From: DATKZS01 sp035527835 [NCBI: bacterium]
GTDB taxonomy: Bacteria > RBG-13-61-14
Assembly: GCA_035527835.1 (NCBI GenBank)
Contig: DATKZS010000025.1
Span: 1-16,621 of the forward strand
Direction: 5' to 3'
DNA length: 16,621 nucleotides
In this document: positions 1 through 16,621 of the stretch, piece by piece
Layout of the letters: every line of letters starts with the position of its first letter
Numbering within the stretch: position 1 is the stretch's first letter
Notes under the pieces: model-generated
Told to the model about the DNA's origin: nothing
The model's database searches: none
What the model saw: the letters and a program-made list of their open reading frames with translations, nothing else
Position numbers and translations under genes: made by a program

Positions 1-100
1 GCTGATCACCCCGATTGCGATGGAGAAGGAGCTTCGGTTCGCGATCCGGGAGGGCGGCCGGACGGTTGGCGCCGGGGTGACGGTGGAGGTAATTGAGTAA
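1..100 (+). CDS. tuf: Elongation factor Tu, C-terminal end (partial, upstream copy)
   Basis: Bases 2-100 encode the last 32 residues of EF-Tu and a TAA stop. The tail reads [19 protein letters not shown], then [13 protein letters not shown], which is the conserved end of the third beta-barrel domain. EF-Tu is the cytoplasmic GTPase that carries aminoacyl-tRNA to the ribosome. Only the end is visible, because the gene begins outside the window. It lies directly upstream of rpmG, the usual place for the copy that heads the rpmG-secE-nusG cluster. A second tuf begins at 16518, so the genome has at least two copies. Identification of the family is very secure; nothing can be said of the GTPase domain of this copy. 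Confidence 0.95.
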
Positions 101-110
101 GAAGAGAATT

Positions 111-184
111 AACAAGGATATTTAGGATAAACAGGATAAGATTTTATTTATTTTCATATCCTTAATATCCTTGACATCCTTGTT
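111..184. repeat. Inverted repeat with 9-nt unit arms, copy 1 (tuf-rpmG gap)
   Basis: The 28-nt arms at 111-138 and 157-184 are reverse complements at about 22 of 28 positions and are separated by an AT-rich loop. Each arm is a run of AAGGATAtt-like units spaced about 9 nt apart. The same element recurs at 2108-2184 and 8672-8738. It starts 10 nt after the tuf stop codon, so it would form a long hairpin in the mRNA. There is no clean U-run, so I do not call it an intrinsic terminator. Confidence 0.85.
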
Positions 185-209
185 ACTCCAATCCTTCTGA
201 AAAAAGAGC

Positions 210-226
210 GCTGGTTGCAAGCCGGC
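210..226. repeat. Degenerate GGTT-GCA-AACC palindrome (tuf-rpmG gap)
   Basis: GCTGGTT, GCA, AGCCGGC forms a 7-bp stem with two G-U pairs and a 3-nt loop. It resembles the better palindromes at 523-540, 3811-3920 and 12961-13005 and is probably a decayed member of that family. It lies 24 nt before rpmG. Confidence 0.5.
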
Positions 227-250
227 AGCACCTTATGAATAGAGGTCAAG

Positions 251-412
251 ATGGCGAAAGAAGCGAGAATGATCATCACGCTGGCGTGCGGGGAGTGCAA
301 AAACCGCAACTACACCAGCATGAAGAACAAGAAGAATACTCCGGACAAGCTGGAGCGGAAAAAGTACTGTCCGACCTGTCGGAAGCATACGGCTCACAAG
401 GAGACGAAGTAG
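251..412 (+). CDS. rpmG: 50S ribosomal protein L33 (zinc-binding form)
   Basis: This 53-residue basic protein matches L33 over its whole length, with [16 protein letters not shown] near the start and [20 protein letters not shown] after it. L33 sits near the E site of the large subunit. Two CxxC pairs (Cys13/Cys16 and Cys40/Cys43) are intact, so this is the zinc-binding C+ form rather than the cysteine-free form made under zinc limitation. The start at 251 has a GAGG ribosome binding site at 242-245. Met7 at 269 lacks one, although it would give the shorter N-terminus seen in some relatives. The tRNA-Trp gene follows 22 nt after the stop, in the common order tuf, rpmG, trnW, secE. Confidence 0.95.
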
Positions 413-434
413 GCCGGCGGGGTCGGAGTTGCGT

Positions 435-510
435 ACGCCAGTAGCTCAACTGGTAGAGCACCGGTCTCCAAAACCGGGGGTTGGGGGTTCGATTCCCTCC
501 TGGCGTGCCA
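435..510 (+). tRNA. trnW: tRNA-Trp (anticodon CCA)
   Basis: This 76-nt cloverleaf has a 7-bp acceptor stem ACGCCAG/CTGGCGT, a D-stem GCTC/GAGC and an anticodon stem CCGGT/ACCGG around the loop CTCCAAA (anticodon CCA, reading UGG). The T-arm is GGGGG/CCCTC with loop TTCGATT. The discriminator base is G at 507, as expected for bacterial tRNA-Trp, and the terminal CCA (508-510) is encoded. The gene lies between rpmG and secE with no promoter of its own visible, so it is presumably cut out of the polycistronic transcript. Confidence 0.97.
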
Positions 511-522
511 GTGAATTGGCAG

Positions 523-13651: not shown

Positions 13652-13679
13652 TTGCATACGAGTTAACTCCGACTATTAA
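13652..13679 (+). promoter_or_regulatory. Weak candidate promoter for rpsG-fusA-tuf
   Basis: TTGCAT (13652-13657) and TATTAA (13674-13679) are 16 bp apart, directly after the long hairpin and about 20 nt before rpsG. Only three of six bases match at -35 and four at -10. I list it because a terminator after rpsL would require either readthrough or a new promoter here. Confidence 0.25.
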
Positions 13680-13698
13680 GAGAACAGGAAGATAGGAA

Positions 13699-14172
13699 AT
13701 GCCCAGAAGAAGAGAAGTGCCGGTCCGGGAGCTGATGCCGGACCCGATTTACAGTGAAGCGCAGGTCACGCGGTTCATCAGCGCGGTGATGCGGAAGGGC
13801 AAGAAGAGCCCGGCCGAGCGGATCGTTTACGGGGCGCTGGACATCATCGCGCAGCGGACCAAGGACGACCCGGTGAAGACGTTCAAGAAGGCGCTGAAGA
13901 ACTCGATGCCCATGGTGGAGGTGAAGAGCCGGCGGGTGGGCGGCGCGAACTACCAGGTCCCGGTCGAGATCCGGCCCCGGCGGCAGGAAGCGCTGGCCAT
14001 CCGGTGGCTGATCAACTACTCGCGGGATCGCAAGACCGAGCGCACGATGCGGGAGAAGCTGGCGATGGAGATGCTGGACGCGGCCGACAACAAGGGCGGC
14101 GCGGTGAAGAAGAAGGAGGACACCCACCGGATGGCGGAGGCGAACAAGGCCTTTGCTCATTACCGGTGGTAA
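13699..14172 (+). CDS. rpsG: 30S ribosomal protein S7
   Basis: S7 starts assembly of the 30S head by binding 16S rRNA and contacts mRNA at the E site. In E. coli it also represses the str operon. The 157-residue protein matches the family over its length: [20 protein letters not shown] at the start, [20 protein letters not shown] around 64-83, and a C-terminal tail ending [17 protein letters not shown] (13686-13690) lies 8 nt before the ATG. The gap to rpsL is 219 nt and holds a terminator and a long inverted repeat. fusA begins 129 nt downstream. In E. coli the S7 operator lies between rpsL and rpsG; I see no obvious counterpart. Confidence 0.97.
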
Positions 14173-14301
14173 CGTAAAAGGTCCGGCGGGGGAGTCGGTC
14201 CCCGGTCCGGGCACTCAGGAGACGACAAGATTGATGATCCGGAATAGGATTGGCCATGATCTGGCGCGCATTCCGGTGGCTTATGCCGGGCGAGGGGCTC
14301 T

Positions 14302-16386
14302 TTGGGAAGAGTTGTACCATTATCACGCATCCGCAACATCGGAATCATGGCGCACATTGATGCCGGCAAGACCACTACGACCGAGCGGATCCTCTTCTAC
14401 ACCGGAGTCACCTACCGGCTGGGTAACGTGGACGAAGGCAACACGGTCACGGATTGGATGGAGCAGGAACAGGAGCGGGGCATCACCATCACGGCTGCGG
14501 CCACCACTTGCTTCTGGCGCGATCACCGCATCAACATAATTGACACTCCCGGCCACGTTGACTTCACCGTTGAAGTCGAGCGGTCCCTCCGAGTCCTGGA
14601 CGGGGCCATCGCTGTTTTTGACGCCTACGGAGGCGTGGAACCCCAGTCGGAAACGGTCTGGCGTCAGGCCGACAAGTACGGGGTCCCCAGGATCGCCTTC
14701 GTCAACAAGATGGATCGTGTGGGCGCGAACTTCCCGAACGTGCTCGAAATGATCCAAGCCAGATTAAAAGCAACGCCGCTGCCGGTGCAGATCCCCATCG
14801 GGGCCGAGACCGGCTTCACGGGCGTGATAGATCTGATCCGCATGACCGGGATCATCTGGGACGAAGAGACCCTGGGGGCGCGGATGCGGGAAATCCCCGT
14901 TCCCGAGGACCTCAAGGAAGAGGCCCTGTACTGGCGCGAGGTCATGCTCGAGACCCTGGCCGAGAACGACGAAAAGTTCATGGACGCCTACCTGGAAGGC
15001 GCCAGCGTTACCGAGGACGACATCCGGGCCGCGATCCGCCGGGCCACGCTCAAGTTGAGCTTTTTCCCGGTGCTGTGCGGCTCGGCCTTCAGAAACAAGG
15101 GCGTGCAGTGCCTGCTTGACGCGGTAATTGATTATCTGCCCTCTCCGCCGGACGTTCCGCCGATCAAGGGCAAGCATCCGAAGACGGGGGAGGAGCTTTT
15201 ACGGACAGCCAGCGACGACGAGCCGTTTACGGCCCTGGCCTTTAAAATCATGAACGACGCCCACAAGGGGGTCATGACGTTCATCCGGGTGTATTCCGGC
15301 GGCATCAAGGCCGGAAGCATGGTCTTGAACGCGAGCAAGGACAAGAAGGAGCGCGTGGGCCGGCTGCTCAAGATGCACGCGATCAAGGAAGAGGACGTGC
15401 CGGAGGTGTGGGCCGGCGACATCGTGGCGGTGGTGGGGCTCAAGAACACCAGCACCGGCGACACGCTCTCGGCCATCAACAAGCCGATCGTGCTCGAATC
15501 CATCGAGTTCCCGGCGACCGTGATCTCGGTGGCGATCGAGCCCAAGACCCGGGCTGACCAGGACAAGCTCTCGAGCTCGCTCGGCAAGCTGATGGCGGAG
15601 GACCCGTCGTTCAAGGTGCACTACGACGAGGAGACGGGCCAGACCATCATTTCGGGGATGGGCGAGCTGCACCTGGAGATCGTGGTGGACCGGATGCTCC
15701 GCGAGTACAACGTCCAGGCCAACGTGGGCAAGCCGCAGGTGGCGTACAAGGAGACGCTGACCAGGGCCTGCGAGGTCGAGGGCCGCTACGTGAAGCAATC
15801 GGGCGGGCACGGCCAGTTCGGCGTGGTCAAGATGCGGTTCGAGCCGCTGGCGGGAGTGGACCAGGGGTTCGTGTTCGAGAACAAGCTCCGGGGCGGCGCC
15901 ATCCCCCAGGAGTACGTGCCCGCGGTGGAGCATGGCGTCAAGCAGGCCATGGAGGTGGGAGAGCTCGCGGGCTACCCGGTGGTCGGCGTCAAGGCGATCC
16001 TGCTCGACGGGAAATACCACGAGGTGGACTCGTCGGACATAGCCTTCAAGGCCGCGGCATCCCTGGCCTTCAAGGAGGCCTCGAAAAAGGGCGGGCCGGT
16101 GCTGCTCGAGCCGATCATGAAGCTCGAGGTCGTGGTCCCCGAGGAATACGTGGGCGACATGCTCAACGACCTGAACCGGAGGCGGGGCACGATTCTTTCC
16201 TTCGAGTCCAGGTCCGGAGCGCAGGTTTACAAGGCGCTGGCCCCGCTGGCCCAGTTGTTCGGATACGTGAACGAGCTCCGGTCGCTCTCGCAAGGGCGGG
16301 CGACCTACACCATGCAGTTCCACAAGTACGACGTGGTGCCGGCAAATTTGACCGAGGAATTGCTCCTCAAGGTAAGGGGCTACTGA
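14302..16386 (+). CDS. fusA: Elongation factor G
   Basis: EF-G is the GTPase that drives ribosomal translocation and, with RRF, ribosome recycling. The 694-residue protein has the P-loop AHIDAGKT (17-24), switch I ending in [10 protein letters not shown] (59-68), switch [10 protein letters not shown] (81-88) and NKMD (135-138). Domains II-V follow, with [15 protein letters not shown] in domain III and HGQFGVV in domain IV. The start is TTG at 14302 with GAGGGG (14292-14297) 4 nt before it. A stop at 14257-14259 in the same frame and the absence of ATG or GTG between them force it; the next ATG would cut the P-loop region. Switch I reads [16 protein letters not shown], differing from the usual GxVHDGAATMDWMEQE. 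The 129-nt gap upstream shows nothing clear. Confidence 0.96.
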
Positions 16387-16401
16387 TTAGGGCGGTGCGG
16401 A

Positions 16402-16494
16402 GGACGAAGAGCGTAGAGCGAAGGGCGAATGGCGTGAAGAATGGCGATGGCTGACTGCACGCTCTACGCCCTTCGCCCTGCGCCCTGCGCCCTA
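16402..16494. repeat. Inverted repeat with heptamer-unit arms (fusA-tuf gap)
   Basis: The 5' part holds GGACGAA, GAGCGTA, GAGCGAA, GGGCGAA, TGGCGTG (16402-16436). The 3' part holds CGCTCTA, CGCCCTT, CGCCCTG, CGCCCTG, CGCCCTA (16460-16494). Segments 16411-16436 and 16458-16483 are complementary at about 21 of 26 positions. It starts 15 nt after the fusA stop and ends just before the tuf ribosome binding site. Confidence 0.85.
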
Positions 16495-16517
16495 CGTAAA
16501 GACCAAGGAGGATTGAG

Positions 16518-16621
16518 ATGGCGAAGGAGAAATTCAATCGGACGAAGCCGCACGTGAATGTGGGGACGATCGGCCACATTGACCACGGGAAGACGACGCT
16601 GACGGCGGCGATCACTCGGGT
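16518..16621 (+). CDS. tuf: Elongation factor Tu, N-terminal start (partial, downstream copy)
   Basis: The first 34 codons of EF-Tu are present: [20 protein letters not shown], then [14 protein letters not shown], before the window ends. The P-loop GHIDHGKT (residues 19-26) is complete. The ATG has a near-perfect AAGGAGGA at 16505-16512 with a 5-nt spacer, as expected for one of the most abundant proteins in the cell. It is the last gene of the str order rpsL, rpsG, fusA, tuf. The overlap with the copy at 1-100 is nil, so the two cannot be compared here. Confidence 0.97.

What the first reader, a model, noticed from the sequence alone, without database searches (positions are those of the whole stretch)
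1..16621. The palindrome RTCGAY is almost absent and appears replaced by RTTGAY
By hand count on the + strand, RTCGAY (GTCGAC, GTCGAT, ATCGAC, ATCGAT) occurs once (ATCGAC near 11385). The non-palindromic relative RTCGAR occurs about 43 times and YTCGAY about 29 times. RTTGAY occurs about 26 times, but RTTGAR only about 9. Ile-Asp pairs are written ATTGAY or ATAGAY in about 14 of 15 cases, although Ile is otherwise nearly always ATC. Val-Asp uses GTT or GTG, never GTC. RTTGAY is exactly the product of deaminating a methylated C in RTCGAY. This suggests a 5-methylcytosine methyltransferase, or a restriction system, acting on RTCGAY in this lineage.
Basis: partly seen in the sequence, partly recalled or inferred. 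Interest (0 to 1): 0.65.

Follow-up and report, generated by a model that had tools for sequence, protein, structure and literature searches.

The report
Clade-wide purge of one DNA word
A deep, uncultured group of bacteria has removed almost every copy of the DNA word RTCGAY from its chromosomes, in a pattern that fits long-standing pressure from a restriction-type system better than a simple mutation bias, although the enzyme responsible is not yet proven.

Summary
The window has 1 RTCGAY against 43 RTCGAR, 27 YTCGAY and 37 YTCGAR; 2000 synonymous shuffles give a mean of 26.7 and a minimum of 17. Of 80 RpoB loci fetched, only the clade member shows it.

The purge affects all three codon frames. 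GTC before Asp is replaced mostly by GTG, and CGA, whose C-to-T product is a stop, is missing from the site context. Leftover sites lie mostly in AT-shifted genes. This favours selection against the site, as type II restriction leaves, over 5-methylcytosine deamination.

Of five methyltransferase families searched, one gene has reciprocal-best partners in all three genomes: a gamma-class, TaqI_C-type adenine methyltransferase with no restriction gene on its visible side. It is the leading candidate; its specificity is untested and no nuclease was found. RTCGAY is a listed site of Bifidobacterium breve UCC2003, and haloarchaeal CTAG is a close precedent.

The parts
1..16621 (.). Stretch nearly free of RTCGAY (1 site); controls RTCGAR 43, YTCGAY 27, YTCGAR 37
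11385..11390 (+). The single RTCGAY site, ATCGAC, an in-frame Ile-Asp pair in rpoC
   Evidence: frame 0
600..4335 (+). secE, nusG, rplK, rplA, rplJ, rplL reading frames used in the codon tests
   Evidence: ORFs; gene names read from the translations, no family search was run on them
4526..8659 (+). rpoB: reading frame used in the codon tests and as the query for relatives and the tree
8838..12941 (+). rpoC reading frame used in the codon tests
   Evidence: name read from the translation
13108..16386 (+). rpsL, rpsG, fusA reading frames used in the codon tests
   Evidence: names read from the translations

Best explanation
RTCGAY has been under restriction-like selection since before this clade diversified, and still is or recently was. 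An unprotected RTCGAY site is costly (cleavage by a type II-style nuclease, or loss of protection when methylation fails), so any change that breaks the site, transition or transversion, is kept, until resident DNA holds only a few per cent of the expected number. Acquired genes still carry sites because they have not yet been purged. Shown: the purge, its exact word, its presence in the window and the three other clade members examined, its presence in all codon frames, and replacements that do not follow a deamination pattern. Inferred: that the agent is restriction, and that the protecting enzyme is the clade-conserved gamma-class adenine methyltransferase (Eco57I and TaqI_C domains); I give that gene about one chance in three. 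The nuclease was not found.
For: Window counts and codon null. G001: 8 RTCGAY against about 230 expected in 222 kb; G003 without L141 and L145: 28 against about 795 in 500 kb (with them 75 against about 851); G002: 3 against about 43 in 178 kb. In 1-kb windows of GC 0.55 or more: 9 against about 715 in G003 (without the two contigs) and 2 against about 160 in G001. All three frames and the transversion-rich replacements. 21 of 28 leftover G003 sites lie where local GC is under 0.56, in a genome of about 0.61. One group at SH-aLRT 100 on a quick RpoB tree of 51 rows. Only one methylase gene has reciprocal-best partners in all three genome pairs; its genes hold no RTCGAY and have GC 0.58, 0.67 and 0.55. 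Two-protein type II systems are the class reported to cause avoidance (PMC4687349).
Against: No RTCGAY nuclease was found; RE_XamI was over cut-off in 0 of 14 genomes. The specificity of the methylase is unknown, its match to M.TaqI covers the catalytic region only, and a CamA-like enzyme scores better. Solitary methylases are not the class known to cause avoidance. The candidate is absent from G014, which also avoids the word. With L141 and L145 kept, RTCGAY is only third most depleted in G003 (O/E 0.255). GTCGAC is also under 30 copies in 11 of 57 genomes outside the clade. G002's rpoB locus alone is not significant (p 0.077). The intergenic test is uninformative.
Confidence: 0.65

Rival explanations
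1. 5-methylcytosine at RTCGAY deaminates to T, turning sites into RTTGAY or RTCAAY.
For: RTTGAY is in excess in the window (25 against 11.0). Double-strand RTTGAY excess is 7 against 30 missing sites in the window, 97 against 452 in a G003 subset chosen for having no site, 114 against 211 in G001 without L097 and L247. GTT before Asp is raised in the window, 8 of 32. G001 has a C5 methylase with a Vsr gene beside it.
Against: Val-Asp goes mostly to GTG (325 of 351 in G003, 83 of 117 in G001), Ser TCG to TCC and AGC, and CGA vanishes in the frame where its deamination products are a stop or Gln (0 of 91). The C5 methylases are not orthologous, G002 has none found, and the G001 one sits in a cassette with two RTCGAY sites.
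Confidence: 0.07
2. The word is purged because it is a signal: a solitary methylase and a reader protein use RTCGAY at a few control places, and stray copies are harmful.
For: The clade-conserved gamma methylase has no restriction gene on its visible side in G001, G002 or G003. A profile of it scores best on 8cxz/7lni, which I recall as CamA, a solitary methylase of C. difficile. A conserved orphan methylase with a depleted putative CTAG motif is reported in Halobacteria (PMC6471742, abstract).
Against: Leftover sites lie mostly in AT-shifted genes (21 of 28 in G003) and no set of conserved regulatory sites was seen; origin regions were not examined. One side of each methylase gene runs off its contig.
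Confidence: 0.15
3. A restriction nuclease of RTCGAY specificity acts without any cognate methylase, self-protection resting on absence of sites.
For: Near-absence of sites in resident DNA.
Against: Leftover sites exist (28 in 500 kb of G003, 8 in 222 kb of G001), which an unchecked nuclease should cut. No nuclease was found.
Confidence: 0.05
4. Codon-pair or general palindrome bias without any enzyme.
For: Phe and Leu codons before Asp also lean to T, and palindromes are broadly depleted in these genomes.
Against: All three frames are affected while RTCGAR and YTCGAY stay common, and 76 of 79 other RpoB loci have an odds ratio of 0.39 or more.
Confidence: 0.02

Closest known systems
Restriction-site avoidance by long-lived two-protein type II R-M systems (Rusinov et al. 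2015, PMC4687349; abstract, sections 12 and 19 and passages seen)
   Same: A palindromic 4-6 bp word is depleted, more so with long residence of the system; avoidance can outlive the system.
   Different: Here it spans a clade of phylum rank by the tool's answer, resident DNA is at 1-4% of expected in G001 and G003, and neither partner of the R-M pair is proven.
Haloarchaeal CTAG and conserved orphan methylase (PMC6471742; abstract and outline seen)
   Same: A deep lineage with a conserved solitary methylase and a depleted putative motif in all genomes analysed there.
   Different: Another word, other organisms; here the link between gene and word is only by co-occurrence in three genomes.
RTCGAY site of Bifidobacterium breve UCC2003 (one passage of PMC12592239, which cites Bottacini et al. 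2018; that paper is not held)
   Same: Same recognition word, listed among sites to avoid in that strain.
   Different: That the enzyme is BbrUI is recall.
M.TaqI (TCGA) and M.BseCI (ATCGAT by recall), gamma-class adenine methylases
   Same: Eco57I and TaqI_C domains; the catalytic region matches M.TaqI, and M.BseCI is among the PDB hits of the profile.
   Different: The candidate is about 745 aa with an extra N-terminal region; similarity does not reach the specificity domain, and 8cxz/7lni score better with the profile.

Membership tests
Avoidance caused by an orthodox type II R-M system | A palindromic word depleted relative to its near neighbours | tested here: met
Avoidance caused by an orthodox type II R-M system | Avoidance independent of reading frame | tested here: met
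   Ile/Val-Asp, Ser and Arg frames in G003 and G001; the window's Arg frame has no cases
Avoidance caused by an orthodox type II R-M system | Avoidance in intergenic DNA | tested here: inconclusive
   too few sites, and the G003 subset had been chosen for holding no site
Avoidance caused by an orthodox type II R-M system | Nuclease and methylase of this specificity in the genome | tested here: inconclusive
   One methylase candidate shared by all three genomes; no nuclease identified; RE_XamI over cut-off in 0 of 14 genomes
5-methylcytosine deamination hotspot | Lost sites reappear as C-to-T (G-to-A) products | tested here: not met
   a partial RTTGAY excess exists
5-methylcytosine deamination hotspot | A C5 methyltransferase shared by the lineage | tested here: not met
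   one each in G001 and G003 without reciprocal-best match, none found in G002; MAGs may be incomplete
Gamma-class adenine methyltransferase with TaqI_C domain | Motif I (DPSFGSGNF or DPACGTGFF), motif IV NPPW, TaqI_C domain | tested here: met
   motif names by recall
Gamma-class adenine methyltransferase with TaqI_C domain | Recognition of RTCGAY | not testable with these tools
   needs expression or long-read methylation data
BclI-like R-M (considered and dropped) | D12 methylase beside a DUF7690/DUF7687 nuclease; word TGATCA | tested here: inconclusive
   Architecture in G001 matches plasmid pBcl1 of B. caldolyticus NEB414; that this strain makes BclI (TGATCA) is recall. The nuclease is in 1 of 60 genomes, so it cannot explain a shared purge

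The most novel reading that the evidence does not exclude
A whole bacterial phylum shares an ancient, vertically inherited RTCGAY-specific adenine methylation system (the solitary gamma-class methylase) whose target has been driven almost to zero in resident DNA, so that RTCGAY now marks newly arrived DNA: self and non-self would be told apart by absence of the word more than by its methylation.
Probability: 0.2. Interest if true: 0.65.

Novelty: new member of a known kind. Interest (0 to 1): 0.42.

Why it matters
R-M systems are thought to turn over quickly, so one word purged throughout a deep clade means unusually lasting pressure. It gives a sequence-only lead to an enzyme of RTCGAY specificity in an uncultured lineage, makes a testable prediction about one conserved methylase, and offers a practical flag for foreign or mis-binned contigs in these genomes.

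Tried and rejected
Deamination by a C5 methylase was tested by codon replacement and by gene sharing, and is disfavoured. The D12 methylase with a DUF7690/DUF7687 nuclease (two copies in G001; the methylase without that nuclease in G003) was followed until relatives were found on pBcl1 of B. caldolyticus NEB414, by recall the BclI strain. RE_XamI: 0 of 14 genomes over cut-off. Relatives of the gamma methylase outside the clade: in plasmids 48 records match, none over 80% of the query; in phages 5, none over 80%; in viral contigs none confirmed; in 57 further genomes 7 match at 1e-20, 6 of them in frames of 937-1024 aa.

A first codon tabulation took an antisense ORF instead of rpoB in the window and was replaced, which uses the 11 real genes there and codon-scored ORFs elsewhere. 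A G003 subset named 'clean' was chosen because it held no site, so its zero is not evidence; (other rows) and 89 are used instead. Dropped rows: L141 and L145 (47 sites of 75) from several G003 counts after they were seen, L151 too; L097 and L247 of G001; L247. Three G001 loci and one G002 locus are wholly masked.

Paper searches: RTCGAY found 1 paper; the other searches listed no paper on this clade or word beyond those cited. Passages of PMC6045613, PMC8021953 and PMC4081073 did not bear on the case.
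Full report
Observation. The window holds one RTCGAY (ATCGAC at 11385, in frame in rpoC) against 43 RTCGAR, 27 YTCGAY and 37 YTCGAR. Fisher p is 9e-7. Shuffling synonymous codons across 11 genes gives a mean of 26.7 (minimum 17 of 2000), and RTTGAY at 25 exceeds all 2000 shuffles. By a maximum-order Markov score, which is conservative because the flanking 5-mers are depleted too, RTCGAY is fourth among degenerate palindromes (1 against 11.4). Reading the translations, the window encodes secE, nusG, rplK, rplA, rplJ, rplL, rpoB, rpoC, rpsL, rpsG and fusA (names are my reading), with a tRNA-Trp at 435-510.

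Lineage. No whole genome is held for the window. RpoB found 80 loci in the genome collection. The closest, L001 (a MAG titled uncultured delta proteobacterium, from sediment by its isolate name), has 0 RTCGAY against 32/15/26; none of the other 79 has an odds ratio under 0.2, the lowest being L054 at 0.22 with p 0.11. Of 60 genomes given as relatives of L001's genome (G001), RpoB loci of 30 were read. G001, G003 and G002 have 0 RTCGAY (p 0.001, 0.009 and 0.077). G014 is the only other one under p 0.01; G015 and G037 are at about 0.04, and L112 (G024) has 0 with few controls. The window, G003, G001 and G002 form one group at SH-aLRT 100 on a quick tree of 51 rows, and the tool's phylum of G001 holds only G001-G003; rank names are withheld, so 'phylum' rests on that answer. 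RpoB identity is 76% window-G003, 89% G001-G002 (over 917 residues) and 69% G001-G003.

Genome scale. Against an expectation from the 2x2 of its neighbours, G001 has 8 for about 230 in 222 kb, G003 75 for about 851 in 517 kb, and G002 3 for about 43 in 178 kb. Of the 75 in G003, 47 lie in L141 and L145; these were set aside after being seen and are read as mis-binned or acquired. The other 28 loci hold 28 for about 795. The same measure gives 0.43-1.60 in five comparison genomes (G015, G037, G024, G031, G038), 0.11 in G014 and 0.17 in G004, so two other genomes also avoid the word, less strictly. In 1-kb windows of GC 0.55 or more, G003 (without the two contigs) holds 9 for about 715 and G001 2 for about 160; at lower GC, 19 for about 94 and 5 for about 78. 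Zero sites are seen in 17 of 30 G003 loci, 24 of 30 readable G001 loci and 14 of 17 readable G002 loci. Among 957-983 degenerate palindromic 6-mers with expectation of 25 or more, ATCGAT (part of RTCGAY) and RTCGAY are the two lowest in G001 and in G003 without the two contigs; with them RTCGAY is third in G003, after ATCGAT and CAGCTG.

Whole-genome GTCGAC counts are 18, 26 and 90 in G001, G002 and G003, against 2344 in G038 and 2079 in G031. But 13 of 60 genomes have fewer than 30 copies, 11 of them outside the clade, with 0 in G025 and G043, 3 in G022 and 7 in G010. So a low count of this one word is not unique. Samples of those four show low TCGA in general (7 in 100 kb of G025, 27 in 97 kb of G043), TCGA kept only as CTCGAG (89 of 92 in G022), or a mild effect (9 for 23 in G010), not a clean RTCGAY purge.

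G002 is instructive. It has lost TCGA broadly (17 against 136 expected in L223-L229), yet its rpoBC contigs keep TCGA (41 against 49) while holding 0 RTCGAY against 16/15/10. A simple reading is an old RTCGAY pressure and a newer, broader TCGA pressure that slowly evolving genes have not yet met.

Mechanism. If methyl-C deamination were the cause, missing sites should reappear as T forms. In G003, of 351 Val-Asp pairs 325 use GTG, 21 GTT, 4 GTA and 1 GTC; in G001, of 117, 83 use GTG, 34 GTT and none GTC. In the Ser frame of G003, TCG is 1 of 191 in R|TCG|AY and is replaced by TCC and AGC, with TCA 9. In the Arg frame CGA is 0 of 91 before Y against 16 of 120 before R, although its deamination products are a stop or Gln. 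Some RTTGAY excess exists (7 for 30 missing in the window; 97 for 452 and 114 for 211 in subsets of G003 and G001), as expected when Ile can only go to ATT or ATA, and the window's Val-Asp GTT share is raised (8 of 32). On balance selection against the site itself fits best. Of the 28 leftover G003 sites, 21 lie where local GC is under 0.56; their ORFs include, by my reading, an integrase and, by family search, a D12 methylase. Sites also lie in methylase or nuclease genes or frames of G001 and G002.

Search for the enzyme. Five methylase families were searched in G001-G003. In an all-against-all of ORFs of 150 aa or more from the matched loci, only one gene has reciprocal-best partners in all three genome pairs: a gamma-class methylase of about 745 aa with Eco57I and TaqI_C domains (68% G001-G002, 36% with G003; the G002 copy runs off its contig). 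Its genes hold no RTCGAY and have GC 0.58, 0.67 and 0.55. Solved relatives include 8cxz/7lni (best with the profile), M.TaqI (best with the single sequence), RM.BsaXI and M.BseCI. No restriction gene is seen on the visible side: a dGTPase-like gene after the G001 copy, a periplasmic binding protein before the G002 copy, an MshEN-domain ORF beside the G003 copy; the other side of each runs off the contig. It is therefore the best candidate for the protecting enzyme and no more: its specificity is not shown, its absence from G014 means G014 would need another cause, and no nuclease is known.

Known context. RTCGAY is listed as a site of B. breve UCC2003 in one passage of PMC12592239. Rusinov et al. 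(PMC4687349; abstract, sections 12 and 19 and passages) report that two-protein type II systems cause avoidance, more so with long residence, that other types mostly do not, and that avoidance can outlive the system. The haloarchaeal survey PMC6471742 (abstract and outline) reports conserved orphan methylases, the putative CTAG motif of one being underrepresented in all genomes analysed. The present case is a new, deep and strong member of this kind. Paper searches listed no description of it for this clade.

Noticed in passing
L223-L231 (G002): TCGA as a whole is lost (17 against 136 expected in L223-L229) except in the rpoBC contigs L230-L231 (41 against 49), as if a broader pressure had come later than the RTCGAY one.
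   Followed up: partly
L308-L312 (G022): In 100 kb at GC 0.68, TCGA survives almost only as CTCGAG (89 of 92 TCGA words), an odd exception inside a near-total TCGA loss.
   Followed up: no
L247:117-3381 (G001) and L169:1180-3389 (G003): The gene directly before a dGTPase-like HD-domain gene is a DNA methylase in both genomes, but of unrelated classes (gamma-class in G001, PF01555 in G003).
   Followed up: no
G001, G002, G003 samples: Other words are avoided too: ACGT in G001 (7 against 85) and G002 (1 against 40), CATG in G002 (44 against 129), CAGCTG in G003 and G001.
   Followed up: no
window 103-193, 2105-2193, 8663-8747; 3806-3920; 13564-13644: Dispersed repeats, some inverted, built on AAGGATATT-like, CAGGTTGCAAACCTG and GCAGATNAACGCAGAT units, lying mostly between genes; exact cores were absent from the sampled G001, G002 and G003 loci.
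   Followed up: partly
L081:1468-3771 (G001): Cassette of C5 methylase, DUF4928 protein (PADLOC REase_II) and Vsr; the latter two genes each carry one RTCGAY site, which suggests recent arrival.
   Followed up: partly
L253:1376-3107 (G001) and L254:3-1314 (G002): A PF01555 methylase preceded by a 246-aa ORF without Pfam match, 95-96% identical between two genomes with 89% RpoB identity; a possible unknown R-M pair.
   Followed up: no
L233-L240 (G014), L286-L289 (G004): Weaker RTCGAY avoidance outside the clade (O/E 0.11 and 0.17). G004's kinship is not resolved, since no RpoB was found in it.
   Followed up: partly
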